Below, piece after piece: positions 39,829 to 48,800 of a DNA stretch of 64,000 nt. The stretch's first letter is position 1. Each line of letters starts with the position of its first letter. The DNA comes from Onchidella celtica (Eukaryota > Mollusca > Gastropoda > Systellommatophora > Onchidiidae), in contig OZ007582.1 of the NCBI GenBank assembly GCA_963931925.1, positions 33,111,730 to 33,175,729 of the forward strand. Reading direction: 5' to 3'. The notes beneath the pieces are model-generated. The model was given only the letters and a program-made list of their open reading frames with translations. It made no database searches and was not told where the DNA came from. A program made the position numbers and the translations under genes.

Positions 39829-42800
39829 ATGCCACGTAAGAGAGCAACTCGTTTGAAGCCGGCAGCGAAGCCAGCGAAAGGGAAGGTGGCTATTGCCGAT
39901 GGGGTGTCTACAAAGGAGAGAAAAGAGCAGCTGGCTGTCTTTATGAAGGATTACGATTGCCAAGGTAATGTAGATCTAACTGCAAAATGCCGTATTTTTG
40001 TATTTTTAGACATCTAGACTAGCATAGAATTTATGTTGTTATCTTTGATCTTGTTGATTACAGCCTGCACTGTCCAATGCACTAGATCTAGATCTAGATC
40101 TAGACTCTAGATTATATCAGTATCTAGAGTCGCATGCCCACATATGAACCAGTAGCGGGGTGCCCTCATTAGAACCACTACTGTCAGTAAAGCAGTGAGT
40201 CTATGATGTTTCTTTCACTTCCACATTGAAGAGTAACCCCTCCTTTGTGGGAGTTCAAGAAGCCAGGCTCATATTCAAGCTTTTGCACTTTCAGTGATTT
40301 TTTTTTTATTTAGAGCCTGAACCTAGCCCAGTGGGTCCCCCATATGAACCACGGTCCCTCTAATGAACCAGTGCCTACCCACATATGAACCACTCTAAAT
40401 GTGACCAATGTTTGCACTGTAAGTAAGCCTGTTTCTTTTCAACAATGTAAAAAAAATAATCATTTAGTCTGGAAGAAAGAATGTTTATGTGAGGAAAATT
40501 TTCCACTGGTTAAGATACTGAACAAATTGATCCCTATACAAACCACTGACTGAAGTGGTTATCAAATTGGAAAGACAAACTATCCACACACTACCCCATA
40601 TAAACCACTCTGTAGGGACCTAGCCCCATACAAACCACCCATCATGATTATTAAATAGAGATAGGCCCTCATTTAAAGCACCTTTGATATGCCATCACTT
40701 AGATTATTCAAACAATCTTTACAGTAGAAATGAGCTGGTTCATCTGGGGACCAGTCACTACCCCATATAAACCACTCTGTAGGGACTGCCCCATTCAAAC
40801 CACCCATGATTATGAAAAAGAGATAGGCCCTCATTTAAACCACCTTTGTTATATGCCATTACTAAAAGTTATTCAAACAATCTTTACAGTAGAAATGAGC
40901 CGGTTCATTCGAGGACCAGTCATAAAATATGTGTGCCCCTTATGAACCACCCTGTTTTCCAACCCTCTCCTCAAAGGAACCAGCAAAATATTTATATTAG
41001 TAGGATATGACAGAGATGCCTATTCTTAGTAACCAGGTCACTTTCATGCTTAAATTAGCACAAGAGAAATGCATTTTTGATCTTCGACCTGTCACGAAGT
41101 ATTCTTATTGTAAAGCAAAAATGGCGGACGGGTTCGAAAAGTTACCTCGATTCATAAGTTTCACCGCCAATTAGGGCAACACAGTGCAAGCTTGAGTTAA
41201 ATGCTGATCACAACTCACAATCGGAGATCTTGGAACGCTCGTGGAAGCGGTCAAAAATACGAAAATTGCCTTTAGAAAACAGCAGAAACGAAATAAATTT
41301 CGGGTGGTTCATAACTGGGACTGGTTCATATGGGGGCAGATGACTCTAGATCTAGGCGCGATCAACACATCGGTGAGATCAGTGCCATAGATTTCTAGAT
41401 CTATAAACTAGTCTAGATCTAGATATCTAGATGATCTAGTTTCATTTGCCCGTGTTTCTAGACTATATGGCGAATCCACATTTTTATCAACACATCACAA
41501 TTGAATTAGTGCCTTCAAAATCAAATTTCCTGAGGAGTGAAGATTTTTGTAGGCCTAATTATTGTCATGGTTAGTTAGATCTAGTGAGTAGTGTACTTGA
41601 TATCAAGATCTGAACTTGTGTAGACCTTTGATAATAATACTGAGTGTTAAATGCCAAGCCATGCGTTTACAATAAAAAACATCCATCTCAAGGACTAACT
41701 CACTGGCCAAGGGAGGCAGGGCTGACTCCCTGCTCACGGTCATTCCGAAGGTCATGTCTTTTTTTACTTTTGGCCACGCTTATTCGCAGACGTTTGGGAA
41801 TAAGATCAGAATCTTATTCGCAGATGGATTTTTGGTTTGTGATTTTATTTAGGAAGAGCTCCTTAACTCTTCATGACCATAGGCGTAGGGGTTTTTCATT
41901 CTGACCGCAGGCAGTCAGGGAGCACTTGATTTTCACCGTAGGGTGGGTTGGAAAAACAACCACAGTACCCTTACTATAAACGCTACAGTAACAATTTTAG
42001 TTGTATGTGTGTGTTGGGAATTGAATGCTGCATCTGTCAGTGTTGTTGGAGTGTCATTTATCTAGAAACAGTGTCCAAGTAAAATACAGCACATAAAGAT
42101 GAATGAAAAATAAAAACAAACTAATTTTGTGTAACAATTTTATCACTCACCAGGTCATAGCAGGTTAACAATGGGAGATATTATATATATCCATGATCAA
42201 AGAAAAAAAATGTCCACATATAATCCAAGAGTTAGAGTAGGTCTATCATCAATAAAAAGTAATTCAAGTGATGTAAGCAGTGATAACTGATATATATGCA
42301 GCATAATCCATTTGTAGGTCAATTGTCAGAGGTTCCAGACTGAGAATCAAGACTAGATCCAGATCCCTGTTCATCATCATATACACGCCTTCATCATCAC
42401 TGAATGAAAGCTCGGAGTCAGATCTGTCCAATGCATGGGTAAATAAATCCATTGCTTGCTGAGCTGTCAATCAATGAGGCCTTTCTTCAACACCAGAGGC
42501 CATGGTTGGAACCCTTGTTCAATTGCAGTTTTGCACTGATCATTTATGTTAAACAAAAATCTCAGGCTGCAAAAAGGTGTCAAAACTGGCGCTGCACTCG
42601 CTAAACTAGGCCAAACCGGATGTAAACAGACTTATAAAAGCCTATTTTCGATAAAAATTGCCGCAAGTAGGACTGTGGTCGCTAAATATTGAATTGTCAT
42701 TTAAACAAAATACGATAGACATGGAGTAAGCCGAATGACTTGACTCGCCGGTCTTTTGGTTACAGCACCGCAGCGCGTGACTCGGCTCGCCGGACATGAA

Positions 42801-45800
42801 GAGTTAAAATGGAGTACAGTCAAGCTATCGATGAAACTTTCACCAAAACATTTTTGATGGCGAGAGCTGTCTATGGGATACAAAATCACCCAAGTACCAT
42901 AACAAGCAGGCGAGAAAGCCCTCTGAATTTTAGCGAGTGATAAAAGTCTAGAAAGATCAGATTAACTTCACAAACATACATTGAAAAGCTGAAACGAACA
43001 ATTCCTTCGCTCAGCGAGTGAGAGGCCAGTGGCGGCCACCCGAGCGTCAATCTCATTCACATGACCAAAACAAACAATACGCATCACTTCTCACTCAGAA
43101 AACGGACCAGTGTAAACAAACAGCGTGTCGAGGGGGAAATCGGAAAGCCGGAAGAGTTCGTCCTCCACTGCCACTCATTCCTTTTTTTCTATTCCAAAAA
43201 CCAACCAGAAGTAAACTCACCTGCCGAGTTGGGTGGGTGGGTGGGTGATTCGAGGCTTCGCAAGATATGATTTTTTTTAATTTTTTTTTTTTTGTCCCTT
43301 TTTTTCTGCATTTTCCCCCACTGATCATCCATCGCTGCTTTGCTCCAAAGTATAAAATTGTGACTAAAATTTTGTTAGATTTTTTACAAATTTTTTTTAT
43401 ATGAATTATTATTATTAAATATTAGCCAATTTTGTCGGGTGTGAAAACACAGAGAAAGTCAGACAGAGGGAATAAAAATGTTCAATTAACAATTAAACTT
43501 CATGGAAACAAAAAAGTAATAAAACAAAACATGACAAAGATCCAGGTTACCGTGGAGAGAGATGAGCTGTTCAGTTCACACAGAGTAAAAGAAATCATTT
43601 TACATTTTTTATTTCAGTCCCGTTCAGTGAACAGGAATGAATAAAATGAACAGGATAAAGAAATCTGGAGCACACTAGTAACATTGATCAGTTTCCCCAC
43701 AACATAAATTTTGCAAAATCGTTTTTAAAAAAAAATATTTTTTTTTCTAAAAATGAGCAATCCCAGGTCTAAAAAAAAATGCTCCGGTGTGGGATTGAAC
43801 CCAAGACAGACCGGACCCACGGTCTCTAACTGATAACCGCAGATGCTAGCCATTGTGCCATCGCAGAATGCGGGAGAATTTTTCCATAGTAGACATCACA
43901 AAACCAATAAACGCCCCATCTGCGAATAAGATCAGGATCTTAAGACGTCTGCGAATTAAGCACTTCGTTTACTTTTTATTTTTTTGTTGATAATCTGTAT
44001 TGTGTGATCCAAATGGAAACCCCTAGAGCAAGCGTTGCAAGTTAGAATTTGACTCAGCTTAATCAAATGGAGAATCAGAATAGAATGCCAAAGATTCTGG
44101 CACGATTCAGTAATTAACATTTCCCAATCTTCACTAATTCTGCTCCAGAACCATTGTCAGAGGGCCACGCTTATTCGCAGTTGTCTGCGAATAAGATCAG
44201 AATTTGATTCTGTGATTTTTATTTAGGAAGAGCTCCTTTGGATCATAATTCTGGATTGTTTTGTTGAATTTAAAAAGGCTCTTCACTCTGTAAGAAGGCT
44301 CATTTCGGAGGAAGGCCTGGTGTAAGTGTTTCTTACGGCAGTGATGCAACAGGTTGTCTTTTTTTAGCGATACTCGTCAGTTATCATTTCCTCAGTAACA
44401 ATAGAGAGACCCAGGCCAGCTTAGTTTAAACGCTTTTGCTCAGGTTTCTCGGTGGCATGATAAGTAATTAAACCCGCCTGCCGAGTCGATAAGGGGGGTT
44501 CGAATGTCTGTAAGAGCTGACCCGACCCCCCCACTGATCATCGTTGCTTTGCTCCAGTTTATAAAATTGTGAAAAGGACTTTTTTTTGTTGTTTTTATTT
44601 TTTTCGATGATATTATTAGCCAATTTTGTCAGATGTGAAATCACAGAGAAAGTCAGACAGAACAAATAAAGATGAACTAAAGTTCCATGCAAACAAAAAA
44701 GTACATACAAAACATGACAAACAGCTGAAGCAGAAGTCTGAGAAGACCCCCAAAATATATTTTCAGTAAATACAGGGTATCGGGTAGATCTAAGTTACTG
44801 TAGAGAGGGTATAGATGAAATGTTCAGTTCATACTGACTGAAAGAAATCATATACGTTTAAAATTTAATTTACATTTTTATTTCTATTCAACAACTGTCC
44901 CATTCAATGAACACGAAGAAATATAATGAAAAGGAACGAATAAAAGAAGTAATCTGGAGCACACTAGAGTAATGATCAGTTTCCCCACAACATCAATTTT
45001 TGCAAAATCCTTCGGGGGGGGGGGGGGATAAGCAGTACAGTAGACAACGGTTAAACCGAAATCGACGGGACCACGGGCTTGTTTTCGGTTTAGACAGACT
45101 TTCGGTTTAGCGATAGGAGTGAAAAGTGCCACTTTCATTAAGAGAGGCAGCCCAAATCACTATCATAGTGGACAAATAATCTAACTGCACAGGCTAAACA
45201 GACTCAACACATCCTCGCTTGCTCTGTTTTTGACTGAGAATGAGGATGAGCGATTGCTCAGGCAAAGGCACACTCGCAGTATGGATGTGCGGGTGAATGT
45301 GGACTAACTCAGAACAGGGAGACATCCATGTGGACGGACAATACAGAACTGCCGTCCTGCCGATCTCGTTACCCTACACGCTGCCATGAAATGCGCTGTC
45401 CACGACAACTAGCGTTGTCTCTCTGATGTCATACATTTTACATGAAAGGTCACTCGCAATGCTCCAGATATAACGTCTGATTTCGGACCAGTGAGGTTAT
45501 AGGCCTCCCTCCCTCTCCCCCTATCCCTGTAGTGCTGCCGCTCCCATGTAGGCCTATACTAATGGGCAGAACGAAGCATGCTGTGCTTTTTTTTCTTTTT
45601 GAGGGGGAGGGGAGTGTAGTGGGGGTGATGTAGTGGCTTGACTCGATGTATGACAAATCACAGTGGACTGGCCTCTGTATCCAGCAGTTTTCTCTTCGGT
45701 TTAACCATAGGGTTATTTCGGTTTAGCGCTAGTTTGTTAGCAAAGATAAAGAGGAATAAAATCGGGGATTCTTATTTTCCTTCGGTTTAGCGCTAGTTTC

Positions 45801-48800
45801 GGTTTAGCCATTTTCAGTATAACCATTCTCCACTGTACTATGTTTTTAAAAAAAAAAACAACTCCGGCGTGGGATTGAACCCAAGACGGACTGAACCCAT
45901 AGTCTCCGACTGATGACCACAGCTGATACTAGTCATAGCGCTGCCGCAGACCACGATAGGCTGGAGGAACTCTTCCATATGGTAGATATCACAAAACCAA
46001 GAAACTCCCATCTGCGAATAAGATTGATATCTTGTTCACAGATGTCTGCGTAATATAAGCACTTCGCTTCAGAGATGATTCAGGAACCAAGACTTTATTA
46101 CCTCTGTCATTGGTTCGCATTACATTGGTTTCAGTGTACTGTATGTATTGAGTGACTGAATACTATTTTTTTTTGTGTTGTTTAAATATATTGCATGAAG
46201 TTGCGCCCAGTCAAGCACAGTCTCCCCCCCCCCCCTCCCCACACACACACACATGTAAACAGACCACCACCATGTATATTAGTTATTACTTTCTGATCTT
46301 GTTCACTTCCTAATTAGCCGGTCTCTTGATGGGGAGCACAGACAAGAATGCTAGGGAATTAGTAATTGGTAACTCTGATTTGATTTGAAGTTTAACTGGA
46401 TCTGTGATTTTATTTGCTCACAATTTTAAATGCAGTTAAATTTTGATTGCCAAGAATGAGCTTGTTGTTTACCACAAGATTCTTGATTTGTAGCACCAGA
46501 GCGGTGCAGGTCCTGTGCTACTGTAAAGAAGAGCTTGACGCATTGGCATGAGAACGACCACTTTGCACCTTTCACGGTCTATTTGTATTTGGTATTCAGA
46601 GCTTCTACATTTCAGGAAAAGAATTAAATTTAAATAGGTCTGTATTAATTTTATTACATTGGTAAAATTCTCAAAAGTTGTTTTGTATATATTAAAAATA
46701 CATAAATAATATATTTGGAAAAAGCTTTGTGAATGTGTATGAAAAATTTCTAATTAGCTTGTAGATTTTAGCCTCTTTCAGAAAGGACAAGACGCACTAG
46801 GGTCCATGTTAATTGTTATAAGGTAATTCTTTCATGTATCTGCAGACACCATGCTTTCTTCGGATATGTATCAAATCAATATGTGTCAGCGACTCAGACA
46901 GTGTTTGCAGCTGACTTAGTAATCAACCATTAAAAACACGTGTATTTTCATTTCAGTTCAAAAGGTGTTGAAGGATATAGAGAAGAAGAAAAGAACAATG
47001 CTGGTATTTATTCAACTACAGTTTGAAAAACAGATTCAAGCTTTGCCTTCGGTAAGAAGATGCTATGTCAATTTTCCTTTTTATTTAATAAATCTGATGT
47101 CAAGAAAAATGAATAGTGCTACCTGCCTGTAAGCAGCATTTTTTATTATTCATGCAAAATTGTGTTTTAATGAACTTTGGAAGTTTGTTCAACCACAATG
47201 CTGCCTGTGGCATTTTTTGTGTTTTTGAATTGCAGAATATGATAGATGCGTGTGAATGATAAATTTATATATATATTTTCAGTACTGTATATGAATTTTC
47301 CAAGATGCATCATGCTTTTGATACTTTACCAGTGATTTGGTCAGAGCCATGAAAAAAATCAGTGGTCAAATTGAAATTTTTTGAAAGGCTGGAACAGATC
47401 CATGGATTGTGAAAACTACTTTTGTCTAACAAGATCTTTGCGTTTGATATCTCTGCTCCCCATTATTCATCATCTATTTTTTTTTTGTTCTTTCCTATGA
47501 ATTTATGTATACATCTCTTGTTCGTTTCCTCTAGATACTTTTTCTTACTACATCTGAGGACCTTGGGTGTTACTGTGTTTAAGTTTAAGGGATTGCTAAT
47601 GTTTATTGTTAGAGAAACGCTGTGGAGAATATTGAGACATTATGGAATCCCAGAGAAGATGGTGAATCTTATCAAGAGCATGTATGAGGGGACAAGTTGC
47701 AGAGTCGTACACGATGGTGAGCTTACTGACAGCTTTGATATCAAAACTGGTGTTAGGCAGGGTTGTTTGCTGTCCCCATTTCTGTTTATTCTGGTGATTG
47801 ATTGGCTTATGAAAGAAACCACCAATGGAGGAAGAAATGGCATACAATGGACCCCATGGACACAGCTGGACGATCTAGATTTTGCAGATGACTTGGCACT
47901 ATTGTCGCACACACACGACCAGATGCAAGCAAAGACTACAGCTCTAAACAAAATTTCAGAATCTATTGGATTGAGGATACACCCTGCGAAGTCGAAGGTC
48001 CTAAAAATTGTTGCACCCCCAAGCGAACAAGTCAAAGTAGGAGATCAACCACTGGAAGATGTAGAGTCCTTCTGCTATCTTGGTAGTATCATTGACAATA
48101 AGGGAGGAACAGAGGCAGAAGTCAAAGCACGAATTGGAAAGGCACAGGCAGCTTTCACGTCCTTAAGCAAGATTTGGAGAACCAAGGATATATCTCTAAA
48201 AACAAAGCTGAGGATATTCAACTCGAACGTGAAGTCAGTCCTGTTGTATGGATGTGAGACTTGGAATGCGTCCCAGGCCTGCATAAAGAGAATCCAAGTT
48301 TTCATCAACAGATGTTTGAGGAAGCTACTTAAGATCAGATGGACAGACAAGGTCAGCAATGAAATTGTTTGGAAAAGAACAAGACAGAGCCCAGTCAGAG
48401 AGGAAATTGGTAGGAGGCGATGGAGATGGATCGGCCACACTCTCAGGAGGCCAGGAAACAGCATCGCGAAGAAGGTATTGGATTGGAATCCCCAGGGCAA
48501 GAGATCAAGAGGAAGGCCGCGCGGAACGTGGAGAAGAGCCAGAGAAAATGATGTGCAACGAAGCGGAAAGACTTGGAATAATGTAAAGAGGCTGGCCCAT
48601 GATAGAGAGGGATGGAAAGTGTTTGTTGGTGGCCTATACCCTGATCCAGGGTGAGAAAGGCAATGATGATGATGAATGTTTATTGTCACCATTGATAATG
48701 TTGTGTTGTTTTTTTTCTTCACCCTAATGAACAGGAAATCAAAGACATGACCCTTAAGGATTTTGCAAGTAAGTGAGCAAAAATATTATGTGTAGCATTG

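What the first reader, a model, noticed from the sequence alone, without database searches (positions are those of the whole stretch)
39965..46956. Borealin intron 1 is a layered nest of at least five DNA transposons
The first borealin intron holds, in order, a 1.23-kb TIR element, two sister copies of family X in direct orientation, a piggyBac-like element inside copy 1 and a pogo/Tc1-like element inside copy 2. Together they fill about 5.3 of 7.0 kb. The nesting gives a relative timeline: family X first, then the TTAA and TA elements. All termini were read directly from the sequence.
Basis: partly seen in the sequence, partly recalled or inferred. Interest (0 to 1): 0.7.

Follow-up and report, generated by a model that had tools for sequence, protein, structure and literature searches.

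The report
Nest of transposons in borealin intron
The first intron of a borealin gene is about three-quarters filled by five small transposon insertions, two of them sitting inside older ones; this is an ordinary kind of genomic debris, unusually cleanly dated, and it includes a family whose ends are built from repeated mirror-image units.

Summary
Intron 1 (39965-46956) contains five DNA-transposon insertions: element A (40127-41346), X copy 1 (41772-43967), a piggyBac-type element inside it (41867-42803), X copy 2 (44163-46066) and a pogo-type element inside that (45038-45835). They cover 5,320 of 6,992 bp. All are multi-copy. Relatives lacking the nested elements show the empty sites: one TTAA in X1 relative L091, one TA in 8 of 13 X2 relatives. 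A is absent from two clean paralogous sites.

Distance from leave-one-out consensus agrees with the nesting: X about 0.11-0.13, pogo-type 0.080, piggyBac-type 0.042, A 0.006. A, which nesting cannot place, is the youngest.

One correction: the X copies are not sisters but two subfamilies with different left interiors. The piggyBac label is supported by a longer copy with the same ends and three PF13843 pieces (L052). The pogo label rests on ends and TA only. A and X have no identified transposase.

X is the most unusual part: 9-bp target duplications, unequal outer 7-mers, and ends of up to five mostly alternating 12-bp inverted units, resembling the nematode Tm1 Mutator/Foldback family. Overall a new member of a known kind; interest is modest.

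The parts
39965..46956 (+). borealin intron 1 (host gene context)
   Evidence: GT...AG read; exons 1+2 match borealin chains in the PDB, best E 0.002
40127..41346 (+). element A, 1,220-bp TIR element, no coding capacity found; TA at 40125-40126 and 41347-41348 (CTAG on both sides)
   Evidence: both ends cleanly found in 17 of 20 fetched genomic copies (L028 and L031 gave no pair, L018's right end is spurious); two clean empty sites; window copy 0.006 from consensus
41772..43967 (+). X copy 1 (subfamily X1), interrupted by the piggyBac-type element; 9-bp duplication TTTACTTTT at 41763-41771 and 43968-43976
41867..42803 (.). piggyBac-type non-autonomous element, 937 bp, flanked by TTAA (41863-41866, 42804-42807), nested in X copy 1
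   Evidence: TTAA intact on both sides in 13 of 20 rows; empty site GAGCTCC-TTAA-AATGG in L091; longer copies L052 and L053 interrupted at window 42322/42324; L052's extra stretch carries three PF13843 pieces
44163..46066 (+). X copy 2 (subfamily X2), interrupted by the pogo-type element; degenerate target duplication (TCAGAG shared)
45038..45835 (.). pogo-type non-autonomous element, 798 bp, flanked by TA (45036-45037, 45836-45837), nested in X copy 2
   Evidence: TA intact on both sides in 17 of 20 rows; unoccupied site in 8 of 13 X2 relatives
41779..41824 (.). X copy 1 left end: alternating inverted 12-bp units (> < >)
43916..43960 (.). X copy 1 right end: two 12-bp units (< <) recognised at up to 2 mismatches
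44170..44195 (.). X copy 2 left end: units > <
46008..46050 (.). X copy 2 right end: units < > recognised
   Evidence: inverted-repeat arm I1

Best explanation
Intron 1 of borealin collected five independent cut-and-paste insertions of non-autonomous DNA elements, presumably each moved in trans by a transposase encoded elsewhere. Two Foldback/Mutator-like X elements of different subfamilies came first, copy 1 leaving a 9-bp target duplication. Later a pogo-type element entered a TA in X copy 2, and then a piggyBac-type element entered a TTAA in X copy 1. Most recently, element A entered a CTAG site upstream of both. Shown here: boundaries, target duplications, empty sites and the order. Inferred: that transposases supplied in trans moved them, and which transposase moved A and X.
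For: Multi-copy families with the same ends at unrelated places. Empty sites: L091 carries GAGCTCC-TTAA-AATGG uninterrupted; 8 of 13 X2 relatives carry (G/C)CAG-TA-CT(A/T) uninterrupted; L023 and L032 carry the flanks of A copies L016 and L019 with a single CTAG. X's 9-bp duplication exceeds mismatched flank pairs (10 pairs, 2,000 permutations, p = 0.0005 at 9 bp; 11 lengths were tried). L052, a longer piggyBac-type copy with the same ends, carries PF13843 pieces. K2P distance of the window copies from leave-one-out consensus: X2 0.127, X1 0.109, pogo-type 0.080, piggyBac-type 0.042, A 0.006.
Against: The X copy 2 duplication is degenerate (TTGTCAGAG against CTTCAGAGA). No transposase was tied to A, X or the pogo-type family. 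In 2 of 3 fetched X1 relatives (L089, L090) the piggyBac site differs by a stretch of about 27 bp; only L091 matches it exactly. The pogo site is unclear in 1 and not recognisable in 4 of 13 X2 relatives. 66 of 97 exact X left ends on C1-C4 have no exact right end within 20 kb in the correct order. The X1 consensus rests on 4 rows. No orthologous empty introns in sister species could be examined. The pogo-before-piggyBac order rests on divergence alone.
Confidence: 0.93

Rival explanations
1. X copies 1 and 2 are the two halves of one event: a tandem or local duplication of a single X, or the two long arms of one large foldback element.
For: They lie 195 bp apart in the same orientation and share ends.
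Against: They are only 64-75% identical where they align. Their left interiors are different sequences, each with its own large genomic family (1,789 and 2,126 first-look candidates, of which 40 each were scored). Copy 1 has its own 9/9 target duplication. Elsewhere in the genome left and right ends pair at about 0.94-1.48 kb (21 of 31 pairs).
Confidence: 0.03
2. The 'nested' pieces are internal parts of larger X variants, not later insertions.
For: None found; X1 and X2 do differ internally, so internal variation exists.
Against: Uninterrupted sites in X relatives, flush TTAA or TA ends, and many copies of both elements at other places. None of the 13 X2 relatives aligned to the interior of the pogo-type element (matches above 30 bits), and in the 3 X1 relatives the stretch in place of the piggyBac-type element is about 27, 27 and 0 bp.
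Confidence: 0.02
3. X belongs to a superfamily other than Mutator, for example P-type like Galileo or Merlin-type, and only resembles Foldback/Mutator elements.
For: No transposase was found. Of 35 MULE-domain hits on C1-C4 taken from the 150 listed, none lies within 5 kb of a listed X end (nearest 7.8 kb).
Against: 9-bp duplication, unequal outer 7-mers and internally repeated ends of variable unit number match Tm1, which its authors call a Mutator/Foldback family (PMC3169594, title, section 5 and passages). By recall, P-type duplications are usually 7-8 bp.
Confidence: 0.3

Closest known systems
Tm1, a Mutator/Foldback family of root-knot nematodes (PMC3169594; section 5 and passages read)
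   Same: 9-bp target duplications; unequal 7-bp outermost motifs at the two ends; ends made of a variable number of short (13-15 bp) units, so the two ends of one element differ in length; a non-coding copy of 1,080 bp; a nested insertion in one described copy.
   Different: In Tm1 the units are described as tandem repeats; in X the 12-bp units mostly alternate in direction, so each end could fold on itself. Unit sequences and outer motifs differ. No X-ended transposase copy was found here.
Foldback-type element Tetris of Drosophila virilis (PMC4079207; passages read)
   Same: Non-autonomous, ends with a variable number of internal repeats, 8-10 bp duplications; placed in Mutator by its authors from the duplication length and from other foldback elements.
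   Different: Tetris ends reach 1.7 kb with about 220-bp repeats; X ends are tens of bp.
piggyBac superfamily
   Same: TTAA duplication; a longer copy with the same ends (L052) encodes DDE_Tnp_1_7 (PF13843) pieces.
   Different: The window copy lacks the 1.6-1.7 kb that L052 and L053 have at 42322/42324, so it looks like an internal-deletion derivative.
pogo superfamily (PMC7386202; passages read)
   Same: TA duplication and a short TIR (at most 40 bp in most pogo families); that pogo ends often begin CAGT, as here, is recalled.
   Different: 798 bp and non-coding; no transposase linked to these ends.
MER6, a Tc1/mariner MITE carrying a SINE domain (PMC6887750; abstract read)
   Same: Precedent for SINE sequence inside a DNA element, as the B-box-like motifs in X might be.
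   Different: In X neither ARAGORN nor folding supports a tRNA-like structure.

Membership tests
piggyBac (element 41867-42803) | TTAA target duplication, single TTAA in the empty site | tested here: met
   13 of 20 rows have TTAA intact on both sides (L054 was not given to that call); L091 empty site
piggyBac (element 41867-42803) | transposase with DDE_Tnp_1_7 domain in family members sharing the ends | tested here: met
   L052 has TTAA and the family ends on both sides and three ORF pieces matching PF13843, E 2e-21, 2e-15 and 2e-9; L053 was not tested against Pfam
pogo / Tc1-mariner (element 45038-45835) | TA target duplication, single TA in the empty site | tested here: met
   17 of 20 rows (L058 gave no pair); 8 of 13 X2 relatives empty
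pogo / Tc1-mariner (element 45038-45835) | DDE_1 transposase between the same ends | tested here: inconclusive
   DDE_1 is common in this genome (150 hits listed) but the loci could not be cut out, so no link to these ends was tested
Mutator/Foldback (X) | 8-11 bp target duplication | tested here: met
   9/9 in window copy 1, L077, L085 and L089; 8/9 in L087 and L091; not seen in L081 and L082; degenerate in window copy 2; right ends spurious in L078 and L079; no usable pair of ends in the other 7 of 16 fetched copies; p = 0.0005 over 10 pairs
Mutator/Foldback (X) | terminal inverted repeats with internal repeats of variable number | tested here: met
   mostly alternating 12-bp units, up to 5 per end, across 18 copies examined; some ends too diverged or truncated to find
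Mutator/Foldback (X) | MULE-type transposase in an autonomous member | tested here: inconclusive
   MULE domains are present in the genome (150 listed of 453 candidates) but none of the 35 compared on C1-C4 lies within 5 kb of the listed X ends
PIF/Harbinger or Tc1/mariner (element A) | 3-bp or TA target duplication plus the matching transposase | tested here: inconclusive
   TA present 18 of 18 on the left and 17 of 18 on the right; 2, 3 (TAG) or 4 bp (CTAG) cannot be told apart; no transposase found
borealin (host gene) | sequence match of exons 1-2 to borealin | tested here: met
   best PDB match borealin, E 0.002; no Pfam match at E<=1; later exons not tested

The most novel reading that the evidence does not exclude
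X is a lineage of Mutator/Foldback-type elements whose ends are self-complementary arrays: a 12-bp unit repeated mostly in alternating direction, with up to 5 units per end, differing between copies and between the two ends of one copy. Each end could extrude a hairpin, and the units would gain or lose copies by slippage or hairpin-templated repair while multiplying transposase-binding sites.
Probability: 0.4. Interest if true: 0.45.

Novelty: new member of a known kind. Interest (0 to 1): 0.3.

Why it matters
The locus is a clean stratigraphy: two nested insertions with empty sites, and sequence divergence that dates the layers in the same order. It also brings out four repeat families of a 1.14-Gb genome. 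X shows the composite-end, 9-bp-duplication plan described for Tm1 in nematodes, which suggests that this kind of end may be wider spread than the few cases I read about. It does not change any general view of transposons or of borealin.

Tried and rejected
Autonomous partner of A. The long A copy on C2 holds a 421-aa ORF with hAT-like motifs (my reading from memory; Pfam shows only a sub-threshold zinc finger in the adjoining frame). Three other copies of that protein at 99% identity lie at places not in the A lists (lists limited to the candidates scored), so it is more likely a separate element inserted in A. The long A copy on C5 holds a repeat-rich ORF; of 8 near-identical genomic copies of its C-terminal part only this one lies in a listed A copy, so it was rejected too. 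Other long A copies (for example on C17, C13 and C11) were not read.

Autonomous partner of X. MULE-domain hits do not coincide with the listed X ends. Only 150 of 453 candidates and the first 100 places of each end were listed, so the test is weak.

tRNA-derived parts of X. B-box-like motifs occur on both strands of the X2 consensus, but ARAGORN finds no tRNA, folding is no better than shuffles, Rfam finds nothing above gathering scores, and the motifs were not seen outside X in the sequence held at that time. Left as a remark.

A longer target duplication for A. Real flank pairs are no more alike than mismatched pairs beyond TA (the lowest p among 11 lengths is 0.05).

Literature. Four phrasings of 'CTAG target' gave 0 papers. 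A search for palindromic or cruciform MULE ends listed 10 of 20 papers and I saw no matching title among them. Further searches were seen as listings of 12 of 75, 10 of 10, 12 of 597 and 10 of 20. I make no claim that X is unpublished.
Full report
What was checked. The intron runs from GT at 39965 to AG at 46956. The 77 aa of exons 1 and 2 match borealin chains in the PDB (best E 0.002; 7 of 9 hits listed at E<=10 are borealin), although no Pfam family matched at E<=1.

Element A (40127-41346, 1,220 bp). Its two ends each match dozens of places (45 rows for the left 501 bases from 39965, 75 rows for the right 501 bases, the latter inflated by internal repeats). Twenty copies were fetched. Both ends were cleanly recognised in the window copy and 17 of the 20; L018 gave a spurious right end, and L028 and L031 gave no pair. 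Ends are GAGTC...GACTC. TA precedes on the left in 18 of 18 (CTA in 15) and follows on the right in 17 of 18 (TAG in the same 17). Two A copies have clean paralogous empty sites: the flanks of L016 meet in L023 as GATCTAGGTTAAT, and those of L019 meet in L032 as GATCTAGGTAGAA, with one CTAG where the filled sites have two. A third (L023 filled, L016 empty) is blurred by extra TCTAGA repeats. The duplication is therefore TA, TAG or CTAG; the three left-side exceptions (TTA, ATA, GTA) speak against a full 4 bp. A prefers CTAG/GATCTAG sequence, carries an array of CATATGAACCAC-like motifs (family D1), and its longest open frame found is 80 aa within the repeats. The window copy is 0.006 from consensus.

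The piggyBac-type element (41867-42803, 937 bp). Genome search gave 29 rows. Twenty loci were fetched; 19 of them and the window were given to the end test, and of the 20 rows 13 have TTAA intact on both sides (L053's left end there is spurious). The twentieth, L054, was fetched for weak matches (72-77% over up to 94 query bases) and gave no alignment above 60 bits; its frame of 292 aa matches PF13843 (E 3e-26). L052 and L053 are interrupted at window 42322/42324 by 1.6-1.7 kb of extra sequence; in L052 this carries three PF13843 pieces (L053 was not searched). The window copy thus looks like an internal-deletion derivative of a piggyBac element. X1 relative L091 reads GGAAGAGCTCCTTAAAATGG without a gap, exactly the two window flanks with one TTAA. 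L089 and L090 differ there by about 27 bp.

The pogo-type element (45038-45835, 798 bp). The first look gave 1,479 candidates, of which 40 were scored and matched (the window included). Of 20 rows with both ends found, 17 have TA on both sides (L058 gave no pair, L072's right end is spurious). Eight of 13 X2 relatives carry the site (G/C)CAG-TA-CT(A/T) unoccupied; in L087 it is unclear and in four it is not recognisable. The label pogo rests on the ends and TA; DDE_1 transposases are common in the genome (150 listed) but none was tied to these ends.

Family X. Copy 1 (41772-43967) and copy 2 (44163-46066) share ends and about 0.7-0.8 kb in all at 64-75% identity. Between the left end and about 43209 or 44466 no alignment was found, and each version is repeated genome-wide (1,789 and 2,126 first-look candidates, 40 scored in each case). 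They are members of two subfamilies, not sister copies. Target duplications of 9/9 were found in copy 1 and in L077, L085 and L089, and of 8/9 in L087 and L091; none was found in L081 and L082, the right ends of L078 and L079 were spurious, copy 2 keeps only TCAGAG, and in the other 7 of 16 fetched copies no usable pair of ends was found. Over 10 flank pairs, spurious ends included, the 9-bp match is higher than in mismatched pairs (0.633 against 0.381, p = 0.0005; 11 lengths were tried and 8 bp gave 0.004), with copy 1 entered one base out of register, which makes the test conservative.

The ends of X. The outer 7 bp are unequal (GGCCACG on the left, CGAAGTG at the right end read inwards). 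Inside lie 12-bp units CTTATTCGCAGA mostly in alternating direction, up to five per end, for example > < > at the left of copy 1 and < > < > < at the right of L089; some ends break the alternation (< < at the right of copy 1, > > at the left of L083) or are too diverged to show a unit. The same rule found 7 units in 122,240 bp of other loci and 12 in the shuffled control. Exact 19-mers of the right and left end occur 326 and 298 times, 0 for the reversed controls. On C1-C4, where both listings are complete, 31 of 97 left ends have a right end (99 in all) in the correct order within 20 kb, 21 of the pairs 0.94-1.48 kb long, against 1 pair in the wrong order (one right end is used twice). The 66 left ends without an exact partner may have diverged right ends or be fragments; this was not tested. 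This plan is close to Tm1 of root-knot nematodes: 9-bp duplications, asymmetric 7-bp outer motifs, a variable number of 13-15-bp repeats (PMC3169594, section 5 and passages). The authors of the Drosophila foldback element Tetris suggested Mutator for it from its duplication length and its foldback structure (PMC4079207, passages), and Mutator duplications are given as 8-11 bp (PMC6446971, passages). I call X Mutator/Foldback-like; membership is not shown because no transposase was linked.

Order of events. Nesting gives X1 before the piggyBac-type and X2 before the pogo-type element. Kimura distance of the window copies from leave-one-out consensus agrees: X2 0.127 (13 rows, the window and 12 of 13 fetched X2 copies; L078 was left out), X1 0.109 (4 rows), pogo-type 0.080 (21 rows), piggyBac-type 0.042 (17 rows), A 0.006 (11 rows; copies without one alignment over 80% of the query were dropped by the filter in the A, piggyBac-type and pogo-type sets, and L053 and L054 were not given to the piggyBac-type set). 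Means of the other copies are 0.124, 0.090, 0.064, 0.041 and 0.014. The pogo-before-piggyBac step and the place of A rest on divergence alone.

Assessment. It is a textbook nest of known kinds of non-autonomous DNA elements, with one family (X) whose ends are unusual in detail. The interest is modest.

Noticed in passing
window 47413-48654: Open frame of 413 aa with reverse-transcriptase domain (RVT_1) in the stretch after borealin exon 2; 95% identical over 363 aa to the ORF of a non-LTR-type element that interrupts a piggyBac-type copy in L051.
   Followed up: partly
L092:2257-4202 (C2 of the genome): Two adjoining frames of a hAT-like (my reading) protein with a sub-threshold zinc finger, inside a long A copy; three further copies at 99% identity with open frames of 518-719 aa suggest a recently active element.
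   Followed up: partly
L093 (C5 of the genome): Long ORF with 24-bp and 66-bp coding tandem repeats followed by a short Cys-containing stretch found in 8 near-identical genomic copies and 140 more distant matches; no Pfam family above cut-off.
   Followed up: partly
window 43771-43885 (minus strand) and 44440-44515 (plus strand): X holds B-box-like motifs (GGTTCAATCCC, GGTTCGAATC) about 43-44 bases after A-box-like ones by my own count on the X2 sequence, facing each other; possibly relics of tRNA-derived SINEs, but ARAGORN and folding do not support it.
   Followed up: partly
window 40082-40126 and 41347-41450: TCTAGA/GATCTAG repeat tracts next to element A; similar tracts flank several other A copies, so A may prefer or help spread this simple repeat.
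   Followed up: partly
L054:1-1329: Two open frames resembling a piggyBac transposase (150 and 292 aa); the 292-aa one matches PF13843 with E 3e-26. Only weakly similar to the window's family in DNA; its ends were not tested.
   Followed up: no
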